A DNA stretch of 64,000 bases from Desulforamulus ruminis DSM 2154 (GTDB lineage: Bacteria; Bacillota; Desulfotomaculia; Desulfotomaculales; Desulfotomaculaceae). Location: contig NC_015589.1 in NCBI RefSeq assembly GCF_000215085.1, positions 3,608,120 to 3,672,119 on the forward strand, written 5' to 3'. Below, in pieces: positions 7,109 to 29,289 of this stretch. Position 1 is the stretch's first letter; each line of letters begins with the position of its first letter. Both the position numbers and the translations under genes were made by a program. The notes under the pieces are model-generated. The model did no database searches. It worked only from the letters and a program-made list of their open reading frames with translations, and was not told the origin of the DNA.

Positions 7109-7518
7109 GTTACCTGCACCTCCTCACACTTCTCGGTAAAGTGCCGAATGGGTATACCCTGCTTTTTTGCTTTGCTGATTTCCTGAGCCATACCATCTGA
7201 TACCCGGTGCCCGAACACCCATAGCTGATCGCATTTGCTAAGTAGAACCAGGGCAAAATATAGTCCGAGTTCGCGCTCTTTTTGGTCACTATCATCCATA
7301 AACTGTGGGTAGTGAAGATGAGGCGCGAGGGGAATAAATCCCTTGCTAACTGCAAACCGACAATAGCCCAGCACACGGATGATGTTGTGTTTCGTGTCAC
7401 CGGCAAAAGGAGAGCATATGTAAACCAGCGAACGGCGCCTTATTTCCTTTTGCGCCGCACAGTCCAAAGAAAGAGTGGCTATATGTTCCGGGCAGCCCTC
7501 GCTGTTATGCTCGTCCAT
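7105..7518 (-). CDS. DUF4406-like phage protein
   Basis: The 137-residue protein is Rossmann-like. Its core, VYICSPFAGDTKHNI, FAVSKGFIPLAPHLHYPQF, LLSKCDQLWVFG and GMAQEISKAKKQGIPIR, matches the DUF4406 / nucleoside 2-deoxyribosyltransferase-like fold. Phage members may act on nucleotides, but no activity can be assigned from sequence. I use ATG 7518, behind GGAGGGGTGG. It overlaps the antirepressor stop by 14 bp. Further upstream the frame is open only as a shadow of that gene. Confidence 0.65.
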   Translation of the reverse strand: MDEHNSEGCPEHIATLSLDCAAQKEIRRRSLVYICSPFAGDTKHNIIRVLGYCRFAVSKGFIPLAPHLHYPQFMDDSDQKERELGLYFALVLLSKCDQLWVFGHRVSDGMAQEISKAKKQGIPIRHFTEKCEEVQVT

Positions 7519-8290
7519 CCCTATCCACCCCTCCCCCGAGGAAGTAGTTGACAAAATACTGCTGCCCTTTGCCAGTAACTTTGGTGGTTTTACTGATGGT
7601 GACATGACCATCCGAATGGGTAATGGCGGTTTCTTTAACTTTGAAAAGACCAAGTTCCATGGCCTTCTGAGTCGGCGCGTTGTAGTCGGTGCCTTTGCGC
7701 TTGATAAGGAAACCGTCCTGGCGGAGCCTTTCAAACAGGCGGTTCTGCCCGATTTCGATACCGTTTCCTTTGAGAATTTTAGCCAGTTCGCCGATTAAAA
7801 TGGTACCGTCCGATGCTGATACAGCATCGGCAAATACCACTTTCGGCTTATCCTGAGCAGCCTGCAGCTGAAGCTGAGCTTTTTCCTGGCGTTCTTCTTT
7901 CAGGGCGGTCAGCAGCTTGATCCAAGAGTCGGGATCATTCATGATTTCTTCTATTTTGGATGTCGTGATGTAGGCTCCGTGTCTCCTTATCTGAGGAAGC
8001 ACCTCATGAGTAACCCAGCGTTTAAACTTCTTGGCTTCGGGCTTGTCAGAGCGCAGGATAACGTTGTAAAGCCCGCTCTCATTAACGATGTTGGTTTGCT
8101 GCCGCCTGCCCATGCTGTCGGTGACGTAAGCCAGACTTACATCATCCTCATCAAGCCGGTCGGCAATCATGCGAGCATTGCTGAGTCCCAGCACTCCGCA
8201 CACATCCTTTAGTACCCACCATGTTTCGCCGTTCCTCTGGATGGTTCTGATCTCCTTTCCCTCGTAGGAGAATACCTGTAGTTCGTTCAT
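7505..8290 (-). CDS. BRO-N / KilAC phage antirepressor
   Basis: The protein has 261 residues. A Bro-N domain covers residues 1-110 (GETWWVLKDVCGVLGLSNARMIADRL, ESGLYNVILRSDKPEAKKFKRWVTHEVLPQIRRHG). A charged linker follows. The C-terminal KilAC DNA-binding domain holds ILIGELAKILKGNGIEIGQNRLFERLRQDGFL and a WFVNYF-like ending (QYFVNYF). Antirepressors of this type switch temperate phages to lytic growth. ATG 8290 fits the Bro-N domain start. A structured intergenic element precedes it. Confidence 0.85.
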   Translation of the reverse strand: MNELQVFSYEGKEIRTIQRNGETWWVLKDVCGVLGLSNARMIADRLDEDDVSLAYVTDSMGRRQQTNIVNESGLYNVILRSDKPEAKKFKRWVTHEVLPQIRRHGAYITTSKIEEIMNDPDSWIKLLTALKEERQEKAQLQLQAAQDKPKVVFADAVSASDGTILIGELAKILKGNGIEIGQNRLFERLRQDGFLIKRKGTDYNAPTQKAMELGLFKVKETAITHSDGHVTISKTTKVTGKGQQYFVNYFLGGGVDRDGRA

Positions 8291-14232: not shown

Positions 14233-15216
14233 ATGAGCAGACTTTGCTTTGGTACATATGCAAAAATATTGCAGAGCGTGATGCAAGAGCCAAACGATAA
14301 TCAGGCAATAGCCGATTTGTTGCTTGGTCTTATGACCGACAATGAGCAGGTAATACCGAAAGTTGTAAGTCGCCTTTTTAACTTCAAACAGGAAGTTCCA
14401 AAGGCCATAGTTGCTGAGGCTTCATCACCCAGAGTGGTTCAGGGGGCATATAAATACTTCAATGAAAAAATAGTCGCCTTCCTGAACCCACACAACAAAG
14501 ATGAACTATTGCCACATATGACAAAGCTCATCAAAGATGACAGCACTATAACTGCTGATAAAAAGAAGGCGTTACTTGGTAAAGCAACGCCTGAAACGCT
14601 TGCTGAATTTTTAGCAGATACTTTTTTATACGCACTTCATCGGCCAAATAAGCTACCTACCGGTGATGCCGACAAGAAGATAAGCAGCGAACTAATCGCT
14701 GCCTTGAATGATATAGAGAAGCTGCAAGAAATACTTTCCAGGTTTCCTCGCCCAGCAGCCTTAGAGATACCCGAAGAAGTAGAATCGGACGAATTGACAT
14801 ACGTAACGGAACTGTTGGCGGCTTATGCCGACGCAGAGGGAATAGCCTATTTACCAAAAGAATCGCTAACACAATACCCGAAGTATAAAGCTGATTTTGA
14901 GCGCCGGAGAAAAGACTATTATGCAGCCGAAACCATCAGGAGAGGTTCAAGAGACGTTTTCGGAGAAAAAGACCCCGATCAGTTTGATGTTTTGAAAGAT
15001 GAAACTTACGACGGCGTAATTGATGTGCATTCGCAGGATTTTCCTCATGGCTTTGCCCGGTTAAATAAGGTTATGGCGCAAGCTGCCACTATCCGTGTAG
15101 ATAAATGCTTGCTGAGTCGTCTGCCTGATTGGATTGGCGCTAGTGAGAAGAAAGGCGTGTGCCATATTCTAGTGAATGATAAAAGAATCAGGGGATGGGT
15201 GGCAAACGATGAATAA
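14233..15216 (+). CDS. ABC-three-component system C-terminal-domain protein
   Basis: The 327-residue protein begins SRLCFGTYAKILQS and is otherwise helical and soluble. The last 65 residues (VIDVHSQDFPHGFARLNKVM through LPDWIGASEKKGVCHILVNDKRIRGWV) resemble the C-terminal domain shared by the variable protein of ABC-3C defence systems. In those systems this protein is thought to carry the effector, controlled by an SMC/RecF-type ATPase and a small middle protein. Both follow directly here with overlapping ends. The nature of the N-terminal effector is not evident. Confidence 0.65.
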   Translation: MSRLCFGTYAKILQSVMQEPNDNQAIADLLLGLMTDNEQVIPKVVSRLFNFKQEVPKAIVAEASSPRVVQGAYKYFNEKIVAFLNPHNKDELLPHMTKLIKDDSTITADKKKALLGKATPETLAEFLADTFLYALHRPNKLPTGDADKKISSELIAALNDIEKLQEILSRFPRPAALEIPEEVESDELTYVTELLAAYADAEGIAYLPKESLTQYPKYKADFERRRKDYYAAETIRRGSRDVFGEKDPDQFDVLKDETYDGVIDVHSQDFPHGFARLNKVMAQAATIRVDKCLLSRLPDWIGASEKKGVCHILVNDKRIRGWVANDE

Positions 15217-15670
15217 CGTATTCAACACGCCGTTTGAGATATCACTACGCGCCTTGCTGATTCTGGAAACTGCCGGGGAACGATGGGTAACAGCTGACAT
15301 GATCGCTGCAGCAGACTTTATAACCGTTTATGGCAGGGACTTCGGCATATCGGATGTGAATCTTCATGGTGAAAACAGTTTTAAATTTAGCGAGTTTACA
15401 CTGCGCCGTGAGCTTATGAAAAAGGCAGTTAAGCTACTTGTGAAAAATGGTCTGATAAATGTGTCGCCCACCGATAACGGCTTTTCCTACTCAATAAACC
15501 AGAAGGGCATTGATTATTGCGCAAGGTTTACGAATGATTACGCTGATACATACCGTCGCCTGGCAAAACAAGCCCGAGCATACATAGCAGGTAAATCGGA
15601 GCGTGAGATGCTTGCACTGATTAACCGGCACGCGTTATCCTCGCTGCAAAGGAGTGAAATAGATGTCTAA
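15209..15670 (+). CDS. ABC-three-component system middle component
   Basis: The 153-residue protein looks like a winged-helix protein. It opens NNVFNTPFEISLRALLILETAGERWVTADMIAAADFITVYG. The phrase LRRELMKKAVKLLVKNGLINV follows, and then a β-wing with YSINQKGIDYC. It fits the middle-component families of ABC-3C systems. The ATG at 15209 overlaps the upstream stop by 8 bp. The 3' end overlaps the ATPase start by 8 bp, so all three proteins are translationally coupled. DNA binding is inferred. Confidence 0.72.
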   Translation: MNNVFNTPFEISLRALLILETAGERWVTADMIAAADFITVYGRDFGISDVNLHGENSFKFSEFTLRRELMKKAVKLLVKNGLINVSPTDNGFSYSINQKGIDYCARFTNDYADTYRRLAKQARAYIAGKSEREMLALINRHALSSLQRSEIDV

Positions 15671-17438
15671 TTTCTATATTGAGAGGTTGATTGTTACAGG
15701 CAACGGCAAGGAACCCTCTATCCTGGAATTCAAAGAGGGGCTTAATATCGTTTGCGGGCCGTCCGATACCGGTAAAAGCTATGTACTTGAATGTATAGAT
15801 TATTTATTTGGCAGTGACAAAATTCGTTTTGACAGAAACACAGGATATGACTGGGTGAAGCTTATTATTGCCACTGAAAATGGCAGAATTACATTTGAGC
15901 GCCAGTTGGATACCAAGAAAATTGAAGTCCATAGTACAGACCGTGATTTTAAGTCTGGTAGTTATGGGATTAGCGGAAAAAAGAATAATATCAGTGATTT
16001 ATGGCTGCAATTAATCGGTATAGACGAGGAACACCATATTATAAAAAACTCAAGGTTTGAGAAACAGCGTCTTACCTGGAGAACGTTCTCTCATATGTTC
16101 CTCATTAAGGAAACTAATGTTTTTCAAGAACAGTCCATAATCTTGCCCAAACAGAACACGGCATCAACAGCAGCACTTTCCGCACTGCTCTTTCTGATAA
16201 GCGGGATAGACTTTGCTGAAGTCGTTCCTCTTGAGGAAAAAAAGATTAAAGAAGCCCGAAAAAAGGCTGTAGTTGATTATATACACAAGCGGCTGGCTGG
16301 TTTCGCTGACCGCAAAGAAGAATTGAGTAGTATCCCTTATCTGGATGCTTCGAATCTCCAAGGGAAGGTTGAAGCCGTCCTTGATGATATTGCCGAAACC
16401 GAAAGAGCTATCGCAGAATCCATCAAACACAATAAGCAGTTATTGAAAGAGATACTTGCAGTAAATGCACAATTAGCAGAGTGCAACACCCTTTATAATC
16501 GCTATCAAGTGCTTAGGAGTCAGTATGCTTCTGATATAAAAAGATTGACCTTTATTGTTGAAGGGGAATTAAACAAAGACAGTATCAAAGAAACAACAAA
16601 ATGTCCTTTCTGCGAAAGCGATATTCCGGTGCAAGATGAGGGGGGTTACGTTGAGGCATCTCATGCCGAACTGCATAGAATACAGCTTCAACTTGTCGAC
16701 TTAGAAGAAGCCAATCACGACATTGTTAATGAACGCGCAGCTCTTGAAATGAAGATTGCAGACTTAAATGAGAAAAAGTTAGGGATCGAGGTTCTCCTCA
16801 ACAATGAGTTAAAACCTAAAGTGGCGGCGCTTAAACAAACACTAGCGGAATACCGCCGAGCTATTGAAATTCAGAACGAAGCGGCGGTTATTAGCGAGTT
16901 TGAAATAAGTATGAAAACGGAATTATTTGAAGTGCAAATGGAAGACGATTCGGAAGCAGAGTTTAAGGTAAAGAACTATTTTGACCGCGATATTTTAGGT
17001 CCTTTAGATGACTACCTAAACAAAACCCTTGAATTGTGTAAATATGAGGGGCTTAGTTCGGCCTATTTTAGCCCAAGCAACTTCGATGTGTTTATCAACG
17101 GCAAATCAAAGGACGCTTTCGGTAAGGGATATCGAGCATTTTTGAATACGGTGCTTGCTCTTACACTTATGAAGTATTTGGTGGAGCGTGGGAAATACGC
17201 GCCAGGAATACTAGTTGTTGATTCACCGATTCTTTCGCTAAAAGAACGCGGGGACGAGAAAACACCCGATACTATGAAAGCTGCGCTGTTCCAATATCTG
17301 TTGGATAACCAAAGCTACGGTCAGGTTATTATCATTGAAAACAATGTCCCTGAGTTAGATTACAGCAAAGCGAATGTAATTGCTTTTACAAAAGATGAAA
17401 CCCATGGTCGTTATGGATTCTTAAATGGCGTACGCTAA
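15663..17438 (+). CDS. ABC-3C SMC/RecF-like ATPase with CxxC hook
   Basis: The 591-residue protein is a split ABC ATPase of the Rad50/SMC/RecF type. Walker A is GPSDTGKS (residues 32-39) after a β-hairpin. A long coiled coil (about 185-420) is interrupted by CPFC (about 314-317), like the zinc hook of Rad50 but with one visible CxxC pair. The C-terminal lobe has LNTVLALTLMKYL and the Walker B region GILVVDSPILSLKERG. It likely senses invading DNA and gates the effector encoded two genes upstream. Confidence 0.82.
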   Translation: MSNFYIERLIVTGNGKEPSILEFKEGLNIVCGPSDTGKSYVLECIDYLFGSDKIRFDRNTGYDWVKLIIATENGRITFERQLDTKKIEVHSTDRDFKSGSYGISGKKNNISDLWLQLIGIDEEHHIIKNSRFEKQRLTWRTFSHMFLIKETNVFQEQSIILPKQNTASTAALSALLFLISGIDFAEVVPLEEKKIKEARKKAVVDYIHKRLAGFADRKEELSSIPYLDASNLQGKVEAVLDDIAETERAIAESIKHNKQLLKEILAVNAQLAECNTLYNRYQVLRSQYASDIKRLTFIVEGELNKDSIKETTKCPFCESDIPVQDEGGYVEASHAELHRIQLQLVDLEEANHDIVNERAALEMKIADLNEKKLGIEVLLNNELKPKVAALKQTLAEYRRAIEIQNEAAVISEFEISMKTELFEVQMEDDSEAEFKVKNYFDRDILGPLDDYLNKTLELCKYEGLSSAYFSPSNFDVFINGKSKDAFGKGYRAFLNTVLALTLMKYLVERGKYAPGILVVDSPILSLKERGDEKTPDTMKAALFQYLLDNQSYGQVIIIENNVPELDYSKANVIAFTKDETHGRYGFLNGVR

Positions 17439-17462: not shown

Positions 17463-17687
17463 ATGGACAATGAACAAAAACTCGAAAAGTGGTCATCTAT
17501 GGATACTATAACAGACTATCTTGGTGTAAGCCGCGAAACAGTGCTGCAATGGATTAGTAACCGTAATATGCCTGCGCATAAAGTCGGTAGGCTTTGGAAG
17601 TTCAAGATTTCCGAAGTGGACGAATGGATTCGTTCCGGTGGCGCGGCTGACAAAGATAGCTTAACTAAAGATGCCCCAAAGGAGTGA
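17463..17687 (+). CDS. Excisionase-like MerR/HTH_17 DNA-binding protein
   Basis: The protein has 74 residues. A single winged helix-turn-helix covers residues 10-58 (MDTITDYLGVSRETVLQWISNRNMPAHKVGRLWKF), followed by EVDEWIRSGGA. Such proteins act as excisionases or local regulators. It sits between the ABC-3C ATPase and hsdM, ending 7 bp before the hsdM start, behind GGAGGTCC. It may control the restriction genes or assist the recombinase encoded downstream; neither can be shown. Confidence 0.8.
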   Translation: MDNEQKLEKWSSMDTITDYLGVSRETVLQWISNRNMPAHKVGRLWKFKISEVDEWIRSGGAADKDSLTKDAPKE

Positions 17688-17694
17688 AGAAAAT

Positions 17695-19236
17695 ATGGCA
17701 AACGGGAATAACACAGCCGATATCGGTTTCGAACAACAAATCTGGGCGGCAGCAGACATTTTGCGCGGAAATATGGATGCCGCCGAGTATAAGCACGTGG
17801 TCCTGGGGCTTATCTTCCTAAAGTACATATCGGACAAGTTCGAGGAGCGCTATCAGGAACTCCTCGCTGATGATGACGATGTGGAGGATAAGGATGCTTA
17901 CACTGAAGCGAACATCTTTTACGTACCGCCTATCGCACGGTGGAGTGTGATTGCTGAATGGGCACACAAAACCGGAAAAATAACAGATGAAAACGGCAAG
18001 GAAGAGTTTTTCGACATTGGCGGTATAATTGACCGCGCTATGAGAGCTATTGAAAAGGAAAACAAACGGCTTAAGGATGTTCTCCCTAAGAACTATGCCC
18101 GTAGCGAACTTGATAAGCGCCGACTCGGGAATGTGGTTGATTTATTTACCAACATACAGATGATTGAGCACGGCACGGATAAGGACATCCTTGGTCGTAC
18201 CTATGAATATTGCCTCGCCAAATTCGCTGAGCAAGAAGGCAAACGCGCGGGTGAATTCTATACGCCGTCCTGCGTTGTTCGGACGCTTGTTGAGGTGTTG
18301 AAGCCCTTCAAAGGGCGAGTGTACGACCCCTGCTGCGGTTCGGGCGGAATGTTCGTGCAATCCGCAGACTTCGTAAGTCACCATGCCGGCAATATCAACA
18401 ATTTATCTATTTTCGGACAAGATGCGAACCCGACAACACGCAAAATGGCATTAATGAACCTTGCTATTCGCGGCATCGAAGCTGACCTGGGCGGGTATAA
18501 CGCTGATACTTTTCATAATGACTTGCACCCCACGCTGAAAGCGGACTTTATACTTGCCAATCCGCCGTTCAATCTTTCGGACTGGAATGACGGATCGTTA
18601 AACGATGACCCGCGCTGGAAGTACGGCTTACCGCCATCGGGCAATGCCAACTTTGCGTGGCTTCAACATATGATTTACCACCTTTCACCAAACGGCAAAA
18701 TTGGTATGGTGCTTGCCAACGGCTCGCTGTCCTCTCAAAGCGGAGGAGAGGGTGATATTCGTCGCAAAATTGTAGAGGATGATCTCGTAGAGGGAATTGT
18801 CGCGATGCCGACGCAGCTCTTCTACACCACGCAGATTCCAGTTTCGCTATGGTTTATCAATCGTAACAAGAAACAGAAGGGCAAGACATTATTTGTTGAC
18901 GCCCGCAAGATGGGGACGATGGTTAATCGCCGCTTGCGCGAGATGACTACCGAGGACATTGCCAAAATAGCTGCTACTTTCGAGGCGTTTGACAACGGGA
19001 CGCTGGAGGATGTGAAGGGCTATTGCGCCGCTGTAACGACCGCTGATATCGCAAAGCAGGACTACATACTTACACCAGGGCGCTATGTTGGAATTGAGGA
19101 GCAAGAGGACGACGGCGAACCCTTTGATGAGAAAATGGCTCGGCTGACAAGCGAACTATCCGAAATGTTCAAACGCTCTCATGAATTGGAGGACGAAATA
19201 CGCAAAAGACTGGGGGCAATTGGATATGACATCTAA
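17695..19236 (+). CDS. hsdM: Type I restriction-modification DNA methyltransferase subunit HsdM
   Basis: The 513-residue subunit methylates adenine in the bipartite site chosen by HsdS. An N-terminal helical HsdM domain (FEQQIWAAADILRGNMDAAEYKHVVLGLIFLKYISD) precedes the N6-adenine methylase fold. SAM motif I is VYDPCCGSGGMFVQ and catalytic motif IV is ILANPPFNLSDW. ATG 17695 lies behind AAAGGAGTGAAG and fits the family N-terminus. The stop overlaps the first hsdS start by 11 bp. With HsdS it forms a methylase; with HsdR it forms the restriction complex. Confidence 0.97.
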   Translation: MANGNNTADIGFEQQIWAAADILRGNMDAAEYKHVVLGLIFLKYISDKFEERYQELLADDDDVEDKDAYTEANIFYVPPIARWSVIAEWAHKTGKITDENGKEEFFDIGGIIDRAMRAIEKENKRLKDVLPKNYARSELDKRRLGNVVDLFTNIQMIEHGTDKDILGRTYEYCLAKFAEQEGKRAGEFYTPSCVVRTLVEVLKPFKGRVYDPCCGSGGMFVQSADFVSHHAGNINNLSIFGQDANPTTRKMALMNLAIRGIEADLGGYNADTFHNDLHPTLKADFILANPPFNLSDWNDGSLNDDPRWKYGLPPSGNANFAWLQHMIYHLSPNGKIGMVLANGSLSSQSGGEGDIRRKIVEDDLVEGIVAMPTQLFYTTQIPVSLWFINRNKKQKGKTLFVDARKMGTMVNRRLREMTTEDIAKIAATFEAFDNGTLEDVKGYCAAVTTADIAKQDYILTPGRYVGIEEQEDDGEPFDEKMARLTSELSEMFKRSHELEDEIRKRLGAIGYDI

Positions 19237-19735
19237 GTTGGTGCTTTCCGACCTTTGCTATTTCGCCGATGGTCGGGTTGCAGTTTCCGACTTGAATTTG
19301 GATACCTATATTTCCACGGAGAACATGCTTCCGAACAAGGAGGGAATTACCCGCTCGGCGGGGTTGCCGACTGTTTCACAGACACAAGCTTACCAAGTGA
19401 ATGACGTGTTAGTGTCAAACATCCGCCCTTACTTTCGCAAGATATGGTTTGCCGATCGTGACGGTGGCTGTTCAAATGATGTGTTGGTTCTGAGGGCTAA
19501 GAAGGGCTGCAATCCGGGTTTCCTCTACTACCTGTTGTCGGATGACAATTTTTTTGAATATGCGACGGCAACAGCGAAAGGCACAAAGATGCCACGAGGT
19601 GATAAAGGAGCGATTATGCGGTACGGAGTACCCGACCTGCCGCTTGATATACAGATTGGAATTAGCAAGATCTTGTCCGCTCTTGATGCGCGGATATCCA
19701 TAAATAGGGCGATAAATCATCATTTAGTGGCTTAG
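19226..19735 (+). CDS. hsdS: HsdS 5' half gene (truncated by shufflon inversion)
   Basis: The gene encodes one target-recognition domain and the first part of the conserved helix, 169 residues in all. It ends INRAINHHLVA when the frame meets a stop 8 bp past repeat copy 1. Full type I HsdS proteins carry two such units. The missing second unit lies inverted next to it (19732-20445). If copies 1 and 2 recombine, the frame continues NHHLEQMAQAIFKSW and gives a 394-residue HsdS, the size of the intact second one. Single-unit HsdS proteins can also work as dimers, so the half form may not be inert. Confidence 0.85.
   Translation: MTSKLVLSDLCYFADGRVAVSDLNLDTYISTENMLPNKEGITRSAGLPTVSQTQAYQVNDVLVSNIRPYFRKIWFADRDGGCSNDVLVLRAKKGCNPGFLYYLLSDDNFFEYATATAKGTKMPRGDKGAIMRYGVPDLPLDIQIGISKILSALDARISINRAINHHLVA
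19713..19727 (+). repeat. hsdS shufflon recombination site, copy 1
   Basis: The sequence taaatcatcatttag encodes NHHL at the end of the first hsdS half. It is built from the arms TAAAT and ATTTA around an asymmetric CATC centre. Copies 2 and 4 are inverted relative to it and copy 3 is direct. Confidence 0.85.
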
Positions 19736-20445
19736 ATGTTGGTGACGGACAACTCGCCTGACATCAAGCGGGGTAACAAGGTATCCCTGGTTTGCCTAAG
19801 TAGACGGTTTTCAAGATGGTTCTGCTCAAATTTCTCATAAATAGATGCAACTTTATCGCAAAAGTCATCAATGATTCTATCAGGTGGTACAACCACAGCA
19901 AAAGCGAGTGTATCGCTCGGAATAGCGCGTTGTCGGCTTCCTGTAGATCCTGTTACATGTGATAATAGGAAATCCGTGAAGGAGGCACTATCAATGATAG
20001 AGTAATAAAAGTCCTTATGTGATGGGTTCTTCGCCTTGTAAACGATGAACTCAGTAGAACACACAGCATTATCGCTGATACAATAGGGTCGCCAGATACG
20101 CTTAATGCTCGGGTTGAGTTTGGAAATCAAAAAGCAAGACTTATCTACAATATACTTGTTGCTTTTGATTCCAGAAGCTACCTCAAACACGGGCAAGCAG
20201 GTCTCGTCAAATGCTGGTATACTGTAATGCTCCAATACTACATCCGGGCAAGATTGCGGGTTAATTGTCTTAGTGCTTATATCGACAACATCACCAAGCG
20301 GCAGAACCCGCCACCCTGCAGGAATTTCACCCAGTTCGCTCTCGATAAACTCACCGTCAGCGAACGGTTCGAAGTCTACGAACCACGACTTGAAAATCGC
20401 CTGTGCCATCTGCTCTAAATGATGATTTACTGCCCCTCCTGCCAA
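19732..20445 (-). CDS. hsdS: Silent inverted HsdS 3' cassette (second target-recognition domain)
   Basis: The open frame of about 237 codons reads NHHLEQMAQAIFKSWFVDFEPF, a target-recognition domain (LGEIPAGWRVLPLGDVVDIS), and the conserved HsdS ending ENRLLRQTRDTLLPRLMSGELS. It has no hsdS-type start. It corresponds exactly to the second half of an HsdS and begins in repeat copy 2. The stop lies 4 bp from copy 1. Inversion fuses it in frame to the upstream half. An AGGAGG sequence just before the cassette might allow some translation from the minus strand. Confidence 0.85.
   Translation of the reverse strand: MAGGAVNHHLEQMAQAIFKSWFVDFEPFADGEFIESELGEIPAGWRVLPLGDVVDISTKTINPQSCPDVVLEHYSIPAFDETCLPVFEVASGIKSNKYIVDKSCFLISKLNPSIKRIWRPYCISDNAVCSTEFIVYKAKNPSHKDFYYSIIDSASFTDFLLSHVTGSTGSRQRAIPSDTLAFAVVVPPDRIIDDFCDKVASIYEKFEQNHLENRLLRQTRDTLLPRLMSGELSVTNI
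20415..20429 (-). repeat. hsdS shufflon recombination site, copy 2
   Basis: This is the exact 15-bp inverse of copy 1 (ctaaatgatgattta on the plus strand). The identity with copy 3 extends over the following codons for EQMAQAI. Confidence 0.85.
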
Positions 20446-20478
20446 CGCACAAAACCCATTTTACCGAAAGGCAGGAGG
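20435..20478 (+). promoter_or_regulatory. Inverted repeat covering the recombinase ribosome-binding site
   Basis: The sequence cctcctgcc (20435-20443) is perfectly complementary to ggcaggagg (20470-20478), and the latter contains the Shine-Dalgarno sequence of the recombinase (ATG at 20483). Pairing would hide the ribosome-binding site. The reverse strand also offers AGGAGG just ahead of the inverted cassette. The loop is 26 nt. Confidence 0.45.
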
Positions 20479-20482
20479 AACT

Positions 20483-21475
20483 ATGAAAGATAAATTGATA
20501 ACAGAGATTCAGGCAAGTATGGCATCGATGCTCACACTGGCGCAATTGGAGGAACTCCGGCGAGTGCTTACGCAAAGCCTCCACAACGTGGATGTTACTG
20601 AGCGCAAAGCTCCGGAGTCACATGAAAACGCCGAGAACGAAGGGCTGCTTGAAGTGTTTATTTCAGCAAAACGCATTGAAGGTTGTTCGGAAAAATCGCT
20701 TAAATACTACTACGCGACAATCTGCAATATGCTTAACAGCATTAAGAAACCCGTGCGAGAAATCAGTACGGACGACCTGCGCGGCTACCTGGCCGATTAT
20801 CAGAAGGAGCGCGGTTCAAGCAAGGTAACGATTGACAATATGCGGCGCATATTCTCCAGCTTCTTCGGGTGGCTCGAAGATGAGGATTACATTCTTAAAA
20901 GCCCCGTGCGGCGCATTCATAAGATAAAGACGGATAAGACCATTAAGGAAACCTTTTCTGATGAGGGGTTGGAACTACTCCGCGACGCATGCGAGGAAAT
21001 CCGCGACTTGGCAATAATTGACCTGCTTGCGTCAACAGGAATGCGTGTCGGTGAATTGGTTCAACTAAACCGCAAGGACATCAACTTTCATGAGCGTGAG
21101 TGCGTGGTGTTTGGTAAAGGCAGCAGCGAGCGGGTGGTTTACTTCGATGCCCGAACTAAAGTCCACCTGCTTAACTATCTCAACAGCCGCACCGATAATA
21201 ACCCTGCACTGTTTGTGTCGTTAACCCAGCCCCATGAGCGGCTGATGATAGGCGGCGTGGAAACACGGCTCCGTGAAATTGGTAAACGAGCGGATATGCC
21301 GAAGGTACACCCGCACAAATTTCGGCGAACGCTCGCTACACGAGCCATTGACAAAGGAATGCCCATAGAGCAGGTTCAGCGCCTGCTCGGTCATGTAAAG
21401 ATAGATACGACCATGCACTACGCGATGGTCAATCAGGCGAATGTAAAGAATTCACATAGGAAATTTATTGGATAA
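20483..21475 (+). CDS. Tyrosine recombinase (HsdS invertase)
   Basis: The 330-residue XerC/D-type recombinase has an N-terminal SAM-like core-binding domain (residues about 50-140). The catalytic domain shows all active-site residues: Arg in STGMRVGEL, Lys in VFGKGSSER, HPHKFRRT, the second His in RLLGHVKIDTTMHY, and the Tyr nucleophile in that same segment. It lies between two hsdS genes and inside the array of 15-bp repeats. The most direct reading is that it moves the hsdS cassettes rather than integrating the island. The ribosome-binding site GGCAGGAGG may be sequestered in a hairpin. Confidence 0.92.
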   Translation: MKDKLITEIQASMASMLTLAQLEELRRVLTQSLHNVDVTERKAPESHENAENEGLLEVFISAKRIEGCSEKSLKYYYATICNMLNSIKKPVREISTDDLRGYLADYQKERGSSKVTIDNMRRIFSSFFGWLEDEDYILKSPVRRIHKIKTDKTIKETFSDEGLELLRDACEEIRDLAIIDLLASTGMRVGELVQLNRKDINFHERECVVFGKGSSERVVYFDARTKVHLLNYLNSRTDNNPALFVSLTQPHERLMIGGVETRLREIGKRADMPKVHPHKFRRTLATRAIDKGMPIEQVQRLLGHVKIDTTMHYAMVNQANVKNSHRKFIG

Positions 21476-21488
21476 GGAGGAAACGTCG

Positions 21489-22679
21489 ATGCCTCAAGGT
21501 TGGAAGCCTACACGGATAGGCGACATTTGCAAGACGAACCAGCAGACCTATTCGCTGTCAGAGAAGTGGCCGTTCGTCAATTATTTGGACACTGGGAATA
21601 TCACGGAAAACCGAATCAGCGAAATCCAGCACCTCGTCACAGGGCAGGATACCCTGCCAAGCAGGGCGCGGCGCAAGGTTGCCGTTGACGACATCCTTTA
21701 TTCGACTGTTCGCCCGAATCAGCGACATTATGGCATAGTCAAAGAGGTACTGCCGAATATGCTTGTATCTACGGGCTTTGCGGTCATCACAGCGGACAAG
21801 TCGGTAGCGGACAGCGATTTTCTCTACTACTACTTGACGCAGAAAGAAATCGTGGATAGTCTACACGCTATTGGCGAGCAGAGCGTTTCGGCGTACCCGT
21901 CCATAAAACCGTCCGACATAGAGGGCTTGGAGCTGATGCTGCCGCCATTGTATGAGCAACACGAAATTGGACGTACATTGCGGGCGTTGGACGATAAAAT
22001 CGCCAACAACACAATGATAAATCATCATTTAGAGCAGATGGCGCAGGCCATTTATGCTGATTTTGTGGCGAGTGTTGATGGGGCAACTATGAAGCTAAAA
22101 GAACTCTGCGCCTTCCAAGAAGGGTATGTCAACCCATCGCAAAGCCGAACAGAGTATTTTGATGGTGCGATCAAATGGCTTCGGGCGGTTGACATCAACG
22201 AGTCCTTTATCTTCGATACTTCGCGAACACTCACAGACTGCGGTTTTGGGAGTGCGGGTAAAAGCGCGTATTTGTTTAAACCGAACACTATTGCCATTAG
22301 CAAATCGGGCACCATTGGGCGTTTAGGCTTTGTTGCTGACTTTATGTGCGGCAATCGAGCAGTAATCAATATCTCCCCTAACAACACGCGGATTCTGCCG
22401 TTTGTATATCTGTACTTGAAGTCGCGGCAAACAGAGTACCCCGATTTGGCTGTCGGTAGCGTACAGAAAAACCTATACGTCCCGATTTTGCAGGAGCTTG
22501 ATATTCTCGTACCTGAAGAGAGTGTACTACTGGAATTCTGTGATTCAGTTGCTCCTTTGTTTGAACAATGGAAAAACAACGTAGCCGAAAACCGAACGCT
22601 ATCACAAACCCGCGATGCTCTCTTACCCCGCTTGATGTCCGGAGAGTTGTCCGTTGCCGACCACGGCAATGCTAAATGA
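21489..22679 (+). CDS. hsdS: Type I restriction-modification specificity subunit HsdS (intact)
   Basis: The 396-residue HsdS has two target-recognition domains, beginning at GWKPTRIGDICKT and at MKLKELCAFQEGY. Each is followed by a conserved helical spacer (LDDKIANNTMINHHLEQMAQAIYADF and APLFEQWKNNVAENRTLSQTRDALLPRLMSGELS). The two domains set the two halves of the DNA site. ATG 21489 follows AAGGAGG. An in-frame TTG at 21468 is less likely. Repeat copy 3 lies at the junction of the halves, and copy 4 contains the stop codon. The 3' half is therefore a movable cassette. Confidence 0.95.
   Translation: MPQGWKPTRIGDICKTNQQTYSLSEKWPFVNYLDTGNITENRISEIQHLVTGQDTLPSRARRKVAVDDILYSTVRPNQRHYGIVKEVLPNMLVSTGFAVITADKSVADSDFLYYYLTQKEIVDSLHAIGEQSVSAYPSIKPSDIEGLELMLPPLYEQHEIGRTLRALDDKIANNTMINHHLEQMAQAIYADFVASVDGATMKLKELCAFQEGYVNPSQSRTEYFDGAIKWLRAVDINESFIFDTSRTLTDCGFGSAGKSAYLFKPNTIAISKSGTIGRLGFVADFMCGNRAVINISPNNTRILPFVYLYLKSRQTEYPDLAVGSVQKNLYVPILQELDILVPEESVLLEFCDSVAPLFEQWKNNVAENRTLSQTRDALLPRLMSGELSVADHGNAK
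22018..22032 (+). repeat. hsdS shufflon recombination site, copy 3
   Basis: The same 15 bp as copy 1, in the same orientation and reading frame (NHHL), lie between the two halves of the intact hsdS. Confidence 0.85.
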
Positions 22680-22686
22680 TGATTTA
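22672..22686 (-). repeat. hsdS shufflon recombination site, copy 4
   Basis: This exact inverse copy spans the stop codon of the intact hsdS (gct aaa tga) and ends 18 bp before the next gene. It closes the second 3' cassette. Confidence 0.85.
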
Positions 22687-22703
22687 CTAAAGGAGACTTC
22701 TCT

Positions 22704-23552
22704 ATGAGTTATACAGTAAGCGAAAATCAGATGTTGGCAACAATGATAGCCGTTTTGAAAGATGACGGCAAGACAGACCTTGCCAACATTCTAAGCGTGT
22801 CAAAGTTTAACTTTGACCCTCAATGGGAGTTTTCAGGTATAGTTTCTTATCAAAGAAAACTATATTCAAACTTGAAAGTACCCATTGCTTTCCGTGCCAT
22901 GGTCAAGGAAGCGTTACCCGAGCTCTCGAAGATTGCCTGTAGCATCTACGAAGATGACGATACTTATTACTATTTAGGCATCAATGATGTTGGTGTTTTA
23001 GCAATTAACCTTGAAGAGATTACTTTTGAGGAGCGAAAAGTAATTGTCGAGAAGAATAGCGTCTTTACGAGTTTTATGAAATATCTGGCTGATAATACCG
23101 ATGTTCCCGAAATACAGAAGAAGTATCTATTCGAGGCTTGTGAAAATGGCTATTCCAACAATATGTTATCAGCCACAGTAATGTTGGGTTGCTCTGCTGA
23201 ACTGCTACTGCTTGAATTGAGTCGTGCGTATTATGAATATCTCAAAAAGCATGGTACTCCTTCAGAACAATCCGAGTATGAAAGAAAAGTCATCAATGCA
23301 AAGGTAGCATCTGTCCGATTAACAGAGTTAATGAAGCGTATCGAAGCAAACCCAACAATCTTTGAGTCGTTTGGGTTCGAAAATGTACGCTTAAACTTCA
23401 ATTATTTGGACGTGATTCGGCAGAATCGAAATGATAGCGGTCATCCCACAGGCAAAATTATAACAAAAGAACAATTTGAAATGATATTGACTAACTATCA
23501 AGCCTTTCTGCCAAAAACTATTAAGGCTATAAGAGAGTTGCCTAACCTATAA
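22704..23552 (+). CDS. HEPN-domain protein, possible RNase effector
   Basis: The 282-residue protein has an α/β N-terminal half (KFNFDPQWEFSGIVSYQRKLY through YYYLGINDVGVLAI). A helical C-terminal half ends with VIRQNRNDSGHPTG. RNDSGH (residues 242-247) fits the Rx4-6H signature of HEPN ribonucleases, with a polar residue right after the Arg. The surrounding helices fit that fold. HEPN domains are frequent in or near type I restriction systems and can cut RNA upon activation. The ribosome-binding site AAAGGAG directly follows shufflon copy 4. HsdR follows after 21 bp. Confidence 0.6.
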   Translation: MSYTVSENQMLATMIAVLKDDGKTDLANILSVSKFNFDPQWEFSGIVSYQRKLYSNLKVPIAFRAMVKEALPELSKIACSIYEDDDTYYYLGINDVGVLAINLEEITFEERKVIVEKNSVFTSFMKYLADNTDVPEIQKKYLFEACENGYSNNMLSATVMLGCSAELLLLELSRAYYEYLKKHGTPSEQSEYERKVINAKVASVRLTELMKRIEANPTIFESFGFENVRLNFNYLDVIRQNRNDSGHPTGKIITKEQFEMILTNYQAFLPKTIKAIRELPNL

Positions 23553-23573
23553 CGTCATAAGGAGGTTCACCCT

Positions 23574-26500
23574 ATGCCATATACCGAAGCAAATTATGAA
23601 AATGCGGTGCTTGAGGTTTTCCGCGACACATTGGGTTACGGCTATTCCTACGGGCCTGATGTTGTGCGCGATTATTCCGACCCACTGTATACAGACGAGT
23701 TGCTGCCTGCCCTGCGGCGCGTCAACTCGAAACTCCCGGAAGTTGCACTCTCCGAGGCGGTTTATAAGCTGCGCAATTTCGAAGGTGGCACGGTGTTGCA
23801 GAAAAACGTCCAATTTATGGACTACCTCCAAAACGGCGTATCAGTGAATTATTATGACAAGGGTGAACAACGTTCCGCACTCGTTCAGCTTGTGGACTTT
23901 GATAACATCAAGCAAAACACTTTCACTGTCGCTAACCAGTGGACTATTACCGAAAACAGTGAGAAACGTCCAGATGTTATTGTGTTCCTGAACGGTCTGC
24001 CTGTAGTGGTATTCGAGTTAAAGTCACCGAGTCGCGAGGAAACCGATGCTAGCGAAGCTTATCGCCAGCTTCGTAACTATATGAAAGAGATCCCATCCCT
24101 GTTCATCTACAACGCTTTTCTTGTGATGAGCGACCTCGCCACTTCCAAAGCGGGTACAATCACCGCCGATGAAGACCGTTTTATGGAATGGAAAACAAAA
24201 GACGGCAGTTACGAAAATACGCAGTACGCCCAGTTCGACACCTTCATTGAAGGAATGTTCGAGAAGGGGCGACTGCTTGATATTATCAAGAATTTTATCT
24301 GCTTCTCCGGCGACGCGAAGATTCTTGGTGCCTATCACCAATATTTTGCCGTGCGGAAGGCCATTACTTCCACCGCCAAGGCAACCGAAACAGACGGGCG
24401 TGGCGGTGTTTTTTGGCATACGCAAGGCAGTGGCAAGTCATTGTCTATGGTATTCTACGCCCATCTTTTACAGGAGATATTGAACTCCCCTACAATCGTT
24501 GTGCTGACCGACCGTAACGACCTTGACGATCAGCTGTTCGGGCAATTTGCAAAGTGTGCGGACTTCCTGCGCCAAACGCCCCAACAAGCCGAAAGCCGTA
24601 TTCATTTAAAAGAGCTTCTCGCGGGGCGGCAAGCGAACGGTATTATCTTCACTACGATGCAAAAGTTTGAGGAATCCTCCGAAGCCCTCTCCGACCGACG
24701 CAACATCATCGTTATGGCGGACGAGGCGCACCGTGGGCAATATGGACTTGAGGAAAAGGTGGATGCCAAGACAGGACGTGTTATCCTCGGTACGGCTCGG
24801 ATTATCCGTGACAGCCTGCCAAATGCGACCTACATAGGATTTACTGGCACCCCCATCTCCTCGAAAGACCGCTCGACAATTGAGGTTTTCGGCAATTACA
24901 TTGATATCTACGATATGACTCAAGCTGTGGAGGACGGCGCAACTCGCCCGGTCTACTATGAGAGCCGGGTTATTCACTTGAAATTAGACGAGGATGTTTT
25001 GCAGCTAATCGATGCCGAATACGACATTATGGGTGAGAATGCCGAACCATATGCCATAGAGAAAAGCAAAAAGGAACTTGGGCAGATGGAAAGCATCCTT
25101 GGTGCCGACCAGACGATAACTGCCCTGTGTGAGGACATCGTAAAGCATTATGAGGAAAACCGCCAGTATGAACTGACTGGCAAGGCAATGATAGTTGCTT
25201 ACTCTCGCCCGATTGCTATGAAGATTTACCATAAGATTCTTCAAATGCGTCCAGATTGGACAGAAAAACTTGGTGTGGTGATGACAAGCGGTAACAACGA
25301 CCCTGAAGAATGGCGCGAGATCATCGGCAATAAGCGCCACAAAGACGAAATGGCGAAGAAGTTCAAGGATAATAACAGCCCCCTTAAAATCGCCATTGTG
25401 GTGGATATGTGGCTAACAGGATTCGATGTTCCGAGCCTTGCAACGATGTACGTTTACAAGCCGATGGCGGGTCATAATCTTATGCAGGCAATCGCACGCG
25501 TCAATCGCGTTTATAAGAATAAAGAAGGCGGCTTAGTGGTTGATTATGTTGGTATCGCGTCCGCGCTGAAACAGGCGATGAACGACTACACCAACCGTGA
25601 TAAACAGAACTACGGGGAACAGGATATTGCCAAGACCGCCCTCCCGAAGTTTATTGAAAAGTTGGAAGTTTGCCGTGACTTGTTCCATGGGTTTGACTAC
25701 GCCGGCTTTATGGACGCGAAAGCTACAGACCTTGCCCGCGCCAAGGCAATCAGTGGCGGCGTAAACTTCCTGTCTGGTATAGATAAAGAAAAGCAGCGCG
25801 AGTCTTTCGTTAAAGAGGCTATGCTGCTCCGTCAGGCGTTGTCACTCTGTCGCTCACTCCTTAAGCCTGAACAGCGATTTGAAGCGGCATATTTTGAAGC
25901 AGTTCGGACTCTCCTAACCCGTATTACGGGCGAAGGTAAGCCGCTGTCCCTGAAAGAAATAAATGCCCGCGTCAACGAACTGTTAAAAGCGAGCATTCAG
26001 AGCGAAGGCGTTATAAACCTGTTTTCTGATATAGATACGGGGTTCTCGCTTTTCGACCCGAAGTTTCTCGAGGAAATCGCTAAGATGAAGGAACGCAACC
26101 TCGCGGTAGAAATCCTTAAAAAACTTCTCGCCGAGCAAGTATCGCTCTACCGTCGAACGAATCTTGTTAAGTCAGAAAAGTTTTCCGAAATGCTATCCCG
26201 TGCAATGAAAGCGTACTTGAACGGGATGCTTTCCAATGAGGAAGTTATTGCCGAACTAATGAAGATGGCAAAGGACATGGCAAACGCTCAAGCGGAGGGC
26301 GACGCGCTTGGACTGAATGATGAAGAGCTGGCATTCTATGATGCTCTGACTCGTCCCGAAGCAGTAAAGGATTTCTATCAAAATGAAGAACTTGTAGCAA
26401 TGACTCATGAGCTTACCGATATGCTCCGCAAGAACCGCACTATCGACTGGCAGAAGAAAGAATCTGCTCGCGCCGGAATGCGACGCATGGTAAAGAAGCT

Positions 26501-26588
26501 GTTGAAAAAATATAAATACCCGCCTGATGGTATGGAAGATGCAATCGCCACCGTAATTGGTCAGTGCGAGATGTGGGCAGATAACTAA
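23574..26588 (+). CDS. hsdR: Type I restriction endonuclease subunit HsdR
   Basis: The 1004-residue motor and nuclease subunit translocates and cuts unmodified DNA. The PD-(D/E)XK nuclease core lies near residues 130-155 (RPDVIVFLNGLPVVVFELKSPS). Walker A is HTQGSGKSLSM (about 281-291), and motif II is MADEAHRGQYG (about 380-390). Further motifs are YIGFTGTPIS, DMWLTGFDVPSL and MQAIARVNRVYKNK. A long helical C-terminal part contacts the methylase. It is the usual length for HsdR and appears intact. Confidence 0.97.
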   Translation: MPYTEANYENAVLEVFRDTLGYGYSYGPDVVRDYSDPLYTDELLPALRRVNSKLPEVALSEAVYKLRNFEGGTVLQKNVQFMDYLQNGVSVNYYDKGEQRSALVQLVDFDNIKQNTFTVANQWTITENSEKRPDVIVFLNGLPVVVFELKSPSREETDASEAYRQLRNYMKEIPSLFIYNAFLVMSDLATSKAGTITADEDRFMEWKTKDGSYENTQYAQFDTFIEGMFEKGRLLDIIKNFICFSGDAKILGAYHQYFAVRKAITSTAKATETDGRGGVFWHTQGSGKSLSMVFYAHLLQEILNSPTIVVLTDRNDLDDQLFGQFAKCADFLRQTPQQAESRIHLKELLAGRQANGIIFTTMQKFEESSEALSDRRNIIVMADEAHRGQYGLEEKVDAKTGRVILGTARIIRDSLPNATYIGFTGTPISSKDRSTIEVFGNYIDIYDMTQAVEDGATRPVYYESRVIHLKLDEDVLQLIDAEYDIMGENAEPYAIEKSKKELGQMESILGADQTITALCEDIVKHYEENRQYELTGKAMIVAYSRPIAMKIYHKILQMRPDWTEKLGVVMTSGNNDPEEWREIIGNKRHKDEMAKKFKDNNSPLKIAIVVDMWLTGFDVPSLATMYVYKPMAGHNLMQAIARVNRVYKNKEGGLVVDYVGIASALKQAMNDYTNRDKQNYGEQDIAKTALPKFIEKLEVCRDLFHGFDYAGFMDAKATDLARAKAISGGVNFLSGIDKEKQRESFVKEAMLLRQALSLCRSLLKPEQRFEAAYFEAVRTLLTRITGEGKPLSLKEINARVNELLKASIQSEGVINLFSDIDTGFSLFDPKFLEEIAKMKERNLAVEILKKLLAEQVSLYRRTNLVKSEKFSEMLSRAMKAYLNGMLSNEEVIAELMKMAKDMANAQAEGDALGLNDEELAFYDALTRPEAVKDFYQNEELVAMTHELTDMLRKNRTIDWQKKESARAGMRRMVKKLLKKYKYPPDGMEDAIATVIGQCEMWADN

Positions 26589-26604
26589 TGCGGGGGGATA
26601 GAAA

Positions 26605-28686
26605 ATGGATGCTACAAAAGGTAATATCTATCAAATATTGAATGGGTCTAAGCAGTTTGTTATACCCGTCTATCAACGCACCTACAGTTGGGAGAAGGAA
26701 CAGTGTATGCGCCTTTGGCGTGATATAGCTGCCATGCAAAAATCTAACCGGGAAGGGCATTTTGTCGGTTCTATAGTAAACATCGAGGAAAAGGCCATGC
26801 CCATAGGGGTTCAAAAATACATGATCATTGACGGGCAGCAGCGCCTTACCACGCTAACGCTCTTGTTAATTGCGCTGCGCGACTATGCCAGTGTGCATTC
26901 AGAAGAAGCTGGAATTAACGCACATAAAATTACCGACACGCTTCTGCTCAATGCCTACGAAAGCGGTAGTGATCGTTATAAACTATTCTTGACACAAACA
27001 GACCGGGAAGTGCTGATAAAACTTATTGAACATTCACCCATAGGTGAAGAGGTTAGATCTCGGCTGATCGACAACTATTTATTCTTCGCCGGGCAGATAG
27101 CTAAAATGGAATTATCCCCGATTGAAGTCTATCAGTCTATTGGGAAATTACAGATAGTGAATATCACGCTCGATCGTCAGTCTGATGATCCGCAAGCGAT
27201 TTTTGAAAGCCTGAATTCTACCGGCATAGACTTGTCGGAGTCCGACCTTATTAGAAACCATATTCTTATGGGACTGGATACGGATAAGCAAACAGCAGTG
27301 TATAACAATACTTGGAGGCCAACTGAGCTTTTATTTAATTATGAGAGGGCGAGCTCTCTCATGGATAAATTTTTCCGTGACTATCTTACCATGAAACTTG
27401 GAAGAATCCCAAACAAGAATAAGGTTTACGAGGAATTTAAGGCATACCATGCCAATTGCGGTTTGGAAGTAAGCGATCTATGCCTTGATATTTATTCTTT
27501 CTCCAAGCATTATACAGATATGTACTTTTGCAGGAGCGGCGATGAACGCTTAAAATCCCTTTACGAGGAAATGCGCTCTGTTCAAATGGAGGTAGCGTAT
27601 CCGTTCCTCATGAAGGTTCATGATGATTGCGATAGTGGCATGATAACACTAGATGAACTATTGGAAATCATCAGGTTGTGCGTGAGTTATGTGCTTAGGC
27701 GAAGCATTTGCGATATTCCGACGAATTCCCTCAATAAGACTTTTGCTACCATGAAAAATCACATTCGAGCAGATGACTACCTGAATTCTGTAAAGGCCTT
27801 TTTTGTCTTGCAGGATTCATATAAAGAGTTCCCTAACGATGAGCGGTTTATTTCTGCCTTTTTATCACGTGATATTTACCACATGCGTGTTTGCAATTAT
27901 ATCCTTAGCCGCCTTGAGAACTATAACAACAAGTCGGCTGTGAAAACTGATGCGCTGACGATTGAACATATCATCCCTCAAAATCCAAAGTTATCGATGG
28001 AATGGGTTGCTAATCTCGGTGAAAACTGGAAGGAAGTGCAGAAGAAATATTTGCATACTATTGGAAACCTTACATTGACTGCTTACAATTCTGAAATGAG
28101 CGATTCATCCTTTACGGATAAACTTGATATGGAAGGCGGATTCAAACAGAGTGCCCTCCGATTGAATAAATATGTCGTGATGCAGACGACTTGGGGCGAA
28201 GATCAAGTCAAGACTCGCGGCTCGGAACTCGGTGAGTTAGCCAAAAGCATATGGCCATTCCCTGCTTTGAATGATGAGCAGCTTGCCCCTTATATAAAAC
28301 AAGACGATATTGTACCACAGTATTCCATTGACAGCTATGAACAACTGAATGCTTTTAACCGAATCCTGTTTGAGAAACTCAATGCATGCATCATGAATCT
28401 TTCCGCTTTTGTTAAACGTGAATTCAAGAAACTGTACATTGCCTATAAGGTGGATACAAACTTTGTAGATGTTGTAATACAAAAATCGCGGCTGCGTTTG
28501 TCAGTGAACATGAAGTTCGCAGACGTTATAGACCCAAAAGGTCTTTGCAAAGACATAACCGGGTTGGGACGTTGGGGAAATGGAGATGTCGAATTATTCT
28601 TGGATAGTTTGGAACAACTTGATGATGTAATGTTTATAGTTGAGCAGGGCTTCCAGGAACAGATGGGTATCGAAGTCAAGAATTAA
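26605..28686 (+). CDS. DUF262/DUF1524 (GmrSD-like) restriction protein
   Basis: The protein has 693 residues. The N-terminal DUF262 domain shows the YQRTYSWEKEQ strand and MIIDGQQRLTTLTLLLIALRD (DGQQR motif), as in ParB-like NTPase/nuclease folds. DUF1524 around residues 440-500 carries a His-Me finger (TIEHIIPQNPK ... TIGNLTLTAYNSEMS). The C-terminal 110 residues resemble DUF5655. GmrSD-type enzymes of this layout cut modified phage DNA. The gene follows hsdR by 16 bp and probably complements the type I system against phages that escape through DNA modification. Confidence 0.85.
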   Translation: MDATKGNIYQILNGSKQFVIPVYQRTYSWEKEQCMRLWRDIAAMQKSNREGHFVGSIVNIEEKAMPIGVQKYMIIDGQQRLTTLTLLLIALRDYASVHSEEAGINAHKITDTLLLNAYESGSDRYKLFLTQTDREVLIKLIEHSPIGEEVRSRLIDNYLFFAGQIAKMELSPIEVYQSIGKLQIVNITLDRQSDDPQAIFESLNSTGIDLSESDLIRNHILMGLDTDKQTAVYNNTWRPTELLFNYERASSLMDKFFRDYLTMKLGRIPNKNKVYEEFKAYHANCGLEVSDLCLDIYSFSKHYTDMYFCRSGDERLKSLYEEMRSVQMEVAYPFLMKVHDDCDSGMITLDELLEIIRLCVSYVLRRSICDIPTNSLNKTFATMKNHIRADDYLNSVKAFFVLQDSYKEFPNDERFISAFLSRDIYHMRVCNYILSRLENYNNKSAVKTDALTIEHIIPQNPKLSMEWVANLGENWKEVQKKYLHTIGNLTLTAYNSEMSDSSFTDKLDMEGGFKQSALRLNKYVVMQTTWGEDQVKTRGSELGELAKSIWPFPALNDEQLAPYIKQDDIVPQYSIDSYEQLNAFNRILFEKLNACIMNLSAFVKREFKKLYIAYKVDTNFVDVVIQKSRLRLSVNMKFADVIDPKGLCKDITGLGRWGNGDVELFLDSLEQLDDVMFIVEQGFQEQMGIEVKN

Positions 28687-28938: not shown

Positions 28939-29289
28939 TGGTGGAGGCGGGGGGAGTTGAACCCACCGTCCGAAAGAACGACCACAACAGGCTCTACGAG
29001 CGTATACTATGCTTTAGGTTTCACTTCATTGTCGGCCATAGTCAACCTACAATGTTGCTATCCCGGTAGTCTTAGCTATAGCCCTCCGAGAATCAAGCTA
29101 TAGAGCGTCCCGCTAGATTGACCCTCTATCCCGCACCGCGGGCGCAGCAGGTAGAAGGTTAGACAGCAATTAAGCTGCTAAAGCGTATTCTTCGTTGGCA
29201 ATTAAATTGCGTTCACCGTTTAACGGGTAGGTGAGATCCCGGCTCGCTCCTCTTGCCACCGCTTCCCCCGTCGAAGCCATTTCGCCCCC
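28939..29289 (-). ncRNA. ssrA: Transfer-messenger RNA (tmRNA)
   Basis: The 351-nt gene begins GGGGGCGAAATGGCTTCGAC and ends GGTTCAACTCCCCCCGCCTCCACCA. The end strand CGCCTCC pairs with the 5' GGGGGCG to form the acceptor stem, and CCA is encoded. The tag frame (29199-29170) reads ANEEYALAA followed by TAA, a normal proteolysis tag resembling other clostridial ones. tmRNA with SmpB rescues stalled ribosomes. The 3' end is a well-known integration site for phages and islands, and the defence island abuts it. Confidence 0.97.

What the first reader, a model, noticed from the sequence alone, without database searches (positions are those of the whole stretch)
19713..22686. HsdS shufflon with four 15-bp sites and an internal tyrosine recombinase
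Four exact copies of taaatcatcatttag occur, two in each orientation: 19713-19727 and 22018-22032 plus, 20415-20429 and 22672-22686 minus. Each 3' half of hsdS is bracketed by a plus and a minus copy. The junction codons NHHL are in the same frame in both genes. The first gene is now a half gene with its 3' half inverted, and flipping restores a 394-residue HsdS. Two 5' halves and two 3' halves would allow four specificities and off-states.
Basis: partly seen in the sequence, partly recalled or inferred. Interest (0 to 1): 0.75.

Follow-up and report, generated by a model that had tools for sequence, protein, structure and literature searches.

The report
Four-site hsdS shuffling locus, SsuCC20p type
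This is a DNA-methylating and DNA-cutting bacterial defence system whose target-recognition gene can be re-cut and re-pasted by its own recombinase at four identical 14-15-base sites; the same design is already proven in Streptococcus suis, and here it turns up in at least six bacterial phyla, nearly always arranged so that exactly one complete recognition gene exists at a time.

Summary
Four exact copies of TAAATCATCATTTAG (+,-,+,-) bracket two hsdS 3' halves around a tyrosine-recombinase gene in a type I R-M operon, and they are the only exact copies in the 3.97-Mb genome. The locus is a new member of a known kind. SsuCC20p of Streptococcus suis (PMC10790761, PMC5198162) has the same four 14-bp repeats, gene order, two 5' plus two 3' TRDs and internal xerD. 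Its xerD-dependent shuffling into four alleles has been shown experimentally.

Beyond that report, which found the system only in streptococci, I recovered 64 further four-site loci from six named bacterial phyla. (1) The central 6 bp has 13 versions between loci but never differs among the four sites of one locus, the signature of a crossover region. (2) In loci with the recombinase parallel to hsdM, the two 3' halves point opposite ways in 49 of 51, leaving exactly one complete hsdS. (3) Near-identical Lactococcus plasmids carry different arrangements. The window is in such a state: the hsdS behind the recombinase is complete, the one behind hsdM is cut.

Switching in this strain itself was not observed.

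The parts
17671..19236 (+). hsdM, DNA methyltransferase subunit
   Evidence: Pfam N6_Mtase 1e-108 and HsdM_N 7e-26
19226..19735 (+). 5' half of hsdS A, now truncated right after the recombination site (NHHLVA stop)
   Evidence: Methylase_S 7e-7; ORF and flip simulation
19713..19727 (+). recombination site s1
   Evidence: exact 15-mer
19732..20430 (-). 3' half I of hsdS, currently inverted and silent, intact (232 codons)
   Evidence: aligns end to end with 3' halves of relatives, up to 75% identity; weak Methylase_S 0.05
20415..20429 (-). recombination site s2
   Evidence: exact 15-mer
20483..21475 (+). tyrosine recombinase (XerA/XerC/XerD-like, 330 aa, Tyr313)
   Evidence: Phage_integrase 1.5e-33; NF040815 above cut-off; catalytic residues
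21489..22679 (+). complete hsdS B (5' half B + 3' half II), the ON gene in this assembly; alternative TTG start at 21468
   Evidence: Methylase_S 6e-26
22018..22032 (+). recombination site s3
   Evidence: exact 15-mer
22033..22679 (+). 3' half II of hsdS, forward; its stop codon (TGA) lies inside site s4
   Evidence: Methylase_S 4e-11; sequence
22672..22686 (-). recombination site s4
   Evidence: exact 15-mer
22704..23552 (+). protein without a family match, between hsdS and hsdR
   Evidence: no Pfam or NCBIfam match
23574..26588 (+). hsdR, restriction subunit
   Evidence: HSDR_N, SWI2_SNF2, T1RH-like_C; TIGR00348 6e-181

Best explanation
[quoted passage not shown] The internal tyrosine recombinase recombines four identical sites at the hsdS half-junctions and so re-assorts two 5' halves (one behind hsdM, one behind the recombinase) with two 3' halves, giving four HsdS specificities and so four possible methylation and restriction patterns. 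The strands are most likely exchanged within the central 6 bp, which needs only to match between partner sites. Exchanges may well come in pairs: all three ways of pairing the four sites (12|34, 14|23, 13|24) turn one 'exactly one complete hsdS' state into another without loss of DNA or net inversion of the recombinase. Shown here: anatomy, frame, undamaged silent half, within-locus site identity, opposite orientation in relatives, rearranged near-identical relatives. Shown by others in S. suis: recombinase dependence, four alleles, distinct methylomes. Inferred: that this strain switches (likely), and that exchange is coupled (about 0.4; see novel case and first rival).
For: Exact repeats and restored reading frame. 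SsuCC20p has the identical repeats TAAATCATCATTTA/TAAATGATGATTTA, four TRDs and an xerD; deleting xerD freezes the allele (PMC10790761; also PMC5198162). Recombinase about 76% identical to those of streptococcal members (L058, L060-L062) and up to 88% to other relatives in the same layout. 65 four-site loci including the window: 13 central sextets between loci; of 20 mismatches among 260 sites, 19 lie at the outermost positions and none in the sextet. Opposite 3' halves in 49 of 51 parallel-layout loci, with changes between the two opposite states spread over the recombinase tree (at least 15 state changes among these loci). Lactococcus plasmids pJM2A and pUC073A versus pUCCL627F: 100% identical blocks with the two 3' halves exchanged and turned.
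Against: No reads or second isolate of this strain; its locus could be locked. The Lactococcus and other pairs come from different strains, not one clone. Coupling rests on assembly states; selection against zero or two complete genes could give the same pattern, and a Bacteroidota clade with a different layout shows no orientation coupling (4 of 7 same-facing).
Confidence: 0.9

Rival explanations
1. Same shuffling locus, but the sites recombine singly and independently; states with zero or two complete hsdS arise and are removed by selection (self-restriction, or cost of two specificities), so assemblies show one complete gene. This is a rival for the coupled-exchange step only.
For: In the convergent Bacteroidota layout, where one complete hsdS is guaranteed by geometry, 3' halves face the same way in 4 of 7 loci, so single inversions or TRD replacements must have happened there; one double-on (L039) and one off (L148) locus exist.
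Against: Zero and two complete genes are equally rare, although two specificities should be less harmful than a wrong switch; in S. suis cultures PCR and long reads found neither; four sporadically inverted loci outside Bacteroidota, which are free to be same-facing, are all opposite (4 of 4, weak).
Confidence: 0.4
2. The locus is a relic: the recombinase or sites no longer work in this strain and the current arrangement is fixed.
For: No switching seen in this strain; the S. agalactiae ATCC 13813 locus has lost sites (L060; compare).
Against: All four sites exact, recombinase with all catalytic residues, silent 3' half without any stop over 232 codons.
Confidence: 0.08
3. The repeats are only a conserved coding motif (NHHL) of the HsdS central region, not recombination sites.
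For: They lie in a conserved region of HsdS.
Against: Two of the four copies are not at an hsdS junction of a gene in its present state (s4 holds a stop codon); the sextet changes between loci but in step within a locus; identity falls off abruptly outside 12-14 bp; identical repeats lie at the proven switch points in S. suis.
Confidence: 0.01

Closest known systems
SsuCC20p of Streptococcus suis (PMC10790761, PMC5198162)
   Same: Identical 14-bp repeats, hsdM-hsdS-recombinase-hsdS-hsdR order, two 5' and two 3' TRDs with both 3' ones bracketed, exactly one complete hsdS; the S. suis 10581 locus (L062) shares 62% HsdM, 74% HsdR and 76% recombinase identity with the window
   Different: Different organism and TRDs; one protein without family match instead of two hypothetical proteins; lies in a defence island next to ssrA rather than in a prophage; switching untested here
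S. pneumoniae cod/SpnIII locus with PsrA/CreX (PMC7096588, PMC4948785)
   Same: Tyrosine recombinase inside a type I R-M locus inverting hsdS parts at repeats, one pair being 15 bp
   Different: Three unlike repeat pairs (15, 85, about 300 bp), only the hsdS behind hsdM active, six alleles, and a recombinase numbered with catalytic Y247 against Tyr313 here
Inverting type I loci catalogued in REBASE (PMC7394358)
   Same: Duplicated hsdS with inverted repeats, often with a recombinase
   Different: That survey set a minimum repeat length and describes layouts with repeats before and between TRDs; whether four-site 14-bp loci were captured was not checked

Membership tests
SsuCC20p-type phase-variable type I R-M | Two identical pairs of TAAATCATCATTTA / TAAATGATGATTTA repeats | tested here: met
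SsuCC20p-type phase-variable type I R-M | Order hsdM, hsdS, recombinase, hsdS, hsdR with recombinase parallel to hsdM | tested here: met
SsuCC20p-type phase-variable type I R-M | Four TRDs; both 3' TRDs bracketed by opposite sites | tested here: met
   (3' half I is recognised by homologues, only weakly by Pfam)
SsuCC20p-type phase-variable type I R-M | Homologous recombinase | tested here: met
   74-78% identical to streptococcal members; same tree
SsuCC20p-type phase-variable type I R-M | Exactly one complete hsdS | tested here: met
SsuCC20p-type phase-variable type I R-M | Recombinase-dependent switching among four alleles in a culture | not testable with these tools
   needs reads or mutants of this strain
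Pneumococcal PsrA/cod locus | Three unlike repeat pairs and three hsdS genes | tested here: not met
   one repeat type, four copies, two hsdS

The most novel reading that the evidence does not exclude
The recombinase family carries out coupled exchange: all four sites are paired and recombined in two exchanges of one event, so the locus moves only among the four arrangements with exactly one complete hsdS (a closed set under the three pairings). The machine would then keep the number of complete genes at one by geometry, and the Bacteroidota branch reaches the same end by another layout in which both 5' halves face one 3' half.
Probability: 0.4. Interest if true: 0.65.

Novelty: new member of a known kind. 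Interest (0 to 1): 0.45.

Why it matters
The published account found SsuCC20p only in streptococci. The comparison here places the same four-site machine in at least six named bacterial phyla, on plasmids and beside other defence genes, and turns a remark about one species ('only one complete hsdS is ever seen') into a rule that holds in 49 of 51 parallel-layout loci. That makes the unsolved mechanism, coupled double exchange or selection, directly testable, and the concerted central sextet predicts where the strands are exchanged.

Tried and rejected
No plasmid record resembles the window's locus at DNA level; the Pectobacterium recombinase gene has no DNA relative in 5,426 E. coli genomes, so no many-strain series could be used. 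None of the same-genus genomes searched, and only 4 of about 400 same-phylum genomes, hold a close recombinase, so no sister strain of the window was available. pJM1A carries the same 3' half in both positions; an exchange between molecules is possible, but an assembly blend of a mixed population explains it equally and I do not lean on it. Three further viral-contig scans and a phylum scan added few complete loci. A search for an att repeat of the ssrA 3' end found nothing convincing. The idea that the opposite orientation is merely inherited was rejected: both opposite states recur, with at least 15 state changes on the tree. No file of the whole genome could be had.

Full report
OBSERVATION. 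Dinucleotide shuffles of the window expect 0.19 matches at up to two mismatches and never gave four; in the whole 3.97-Mb genome there is no fifth exact copy, and the reversed-pattern control gives none. The copies sit at the junctions of hsdS halves: s1 (19713+) ends 5' half A, s1 and s2 (20415-) bracket 3' half I, s3 (22018+) joins 5' half B to 3' half II, and s4 (22672-) closes 3' half II and holds its stop codon. Simulated inversion s1 x s2 gives a 394-residue HsdS, as claimed. Inversions alone reach 16 arrangements. By counting, 12 have one complete hsdS, two have two and two have none.

SURROUNDINGS. hsdM (17671-19236), the hsdS region, a protein without family match (22704-23552) and hsdR (23574-26588) form one operon-like run. 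The recombinase is a XerA/XerC/XerD-like tyrosine recombinase, NF040815 above cut-off, with R188, K212, H278/R281, H304 and Y313. An ATPase and an ABC-3C protein (CTD6) lie upstream and a GmrSD enzyme downstream, and the run ends at the 3' side of ssrA: a defence island, with G+C of 42-44% in several of its 2-kb blocks against about 50% around it.

KNOWN COUNTERPART. SsuCC20p of S. suis carries the identical 14-bp repeats, four TRDs and xerD. Three alleles were found in one culture (a fourth later), xerD deletion freezes the allele, locked mutants have distinct methylomes, and no assembly, read or PCR showed two complete, no complete, or an inverted xerD in S. suis (PMC10790761). The authors leave the mechanism open and speculate on coordinated double recombination; they found the locus only in streptococci. 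An earlier paper (PMC5198162) shows the four variants in isolates. The library holds no other paper with this 14-mer.

FAMILY. A scan of 84,980 species genomes returned 80 loci with recombinases 64-88% identical, with more from viral contigs and plasmids. A 13-mer repeated in +,-,[recombinase],+,- order was found without presupposing its sequence in most of them. 65 loci including the window have the four sites, from Bacillota, Bacteroidota, Spirochaetota, Synergistota, Pseudomonadota and Actinomycetota by record title; several are metagenome bins, so single phylum labels may be wrong. A recombinase relative (63%) also lies on a plasmid of the archaeon Methanosphaera, without annotated hsd genes nearby.

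SITE ANATOMY. The common form is TAAA-N6-TTTA. N6 takes 13 values between loci. Within loci, among 260 sites, there are 20 mismatches: 14 at the first base, 5 at the last and one at the first base of the right arm (position 10 counted from 0), none in N6. Identity of the four copies falls from 64/64 inside to 6/64 one base upstream and 27/64 one base downstream. The reading is that the arms bind the recombinase and the sextet is the overlap in which strands are swapped; this is inference.

ONE COMPLETE GENE. Orientation was called from open frames and the C-terminal motif. Of 51 loci with the recombinase parallel to hsdM, 22 are forward/reverse, 27 reverse/forward, one forward/forward (L039) and one reverse/reverse (L148): 49 opposite, naive binomial p = 1e-12. 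The loci are related, so that p-value is too strong, but both opposite states recur, with at least 15 state changes among these loci on the recombinase tree. Eleven loci have the recombinase block inverted relative to hsdM; both 5' halves then face the same 3' half, and exactly one is complete whatever its orientation. Seven of these form one clade, mostly Bacteroidota, and there orientation is free (4 of 7 same-facing); the other four are scattered and all opposite. So one complete hsdS is found in 59 of 62 loci; the third exception, L094, has a broken 5' half.

SWITCHING IN NATURE. Lactococcus plasmids pJM2A and pUC073A on one side and pUCCL627F on the other are 100% identical in recombinase, both 5' halves and both 3' halves, but the 3' halves have changed places and turned, the product of paired exchange s1 x s4 with s2 x s3. 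In pJM1A the other gene is complete. L042 and L044 (99% identical recombinase) differ by inversion of the whole block plus one replaced TRD; L093 and L095 share a 3' half that sits in opposite positions.

MECHANISM. Any of the three pairings of four sites, done as two exchanges, maps a one-complete state to another; a single exchange between s1 and s2 or s3 and s4 does not in the parallel layout. Coupled exchange therefore explains the rule directly; selection against wrong counts explains it too, and the free orientation in the Bacteroidota layout shows that single inversions (or TRD replacements in the other direction) do occur somewhere in the family. I hold coupling at about 0.4 and selection about as likely; the two are separable by experiment.

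VERDICT. An active-looking member of a known kind. The window adds a species; the family comparison adds a rule and a likely crossover region.

Noticed in passing
17671-28686 with 14233-17438, beside ssrA at 28939-29289: Defence island next to the 3' side of the tmRNA gene: ABC-3C (CTD6) protein with an ATPase, an HTH_17 protein, this type I R-M locus and a GmrSD type IV enzyme; no att repeat of the ssrA end was found.
   Followed up: partly
19713-19735 and the like in relatives: When a 5' half faces an inverted 3' half, its reading frame ends exactly six codons from the site start (NxxL plus two) in 40 of 51 cases, so the truncated HsdS half is a defined product; whether it acts (for example as a half-subunit dimer) is unknown.
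   Followed up: partly
L102, L103, L115: Bacteroidota relatives with hsdM directly before the recombinase and same-facing site copies downstream, a further layout of the family not worked out here.
   Followed up: no
L141 (pJM1A) 5277-8169: Both positions hold the same 3' half (100% identical), one inverted and one forward: exchange between molecules, or an assembly blend.
   Followed up: partly
L144 (Methanosphaera plasmid pNP174) 6001-6999: Archaeal plasmid encodes a recombinase 63% identical to the window's, without annotated hsd genes within 6 kb.
   Followed up: no
window 20483-20650: The recombinase family has a moderately conserved N-terminal stretch of about 50 residues before the SAM-like domain; a role in synapsis is conceivable but untested.
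   Followed up: no
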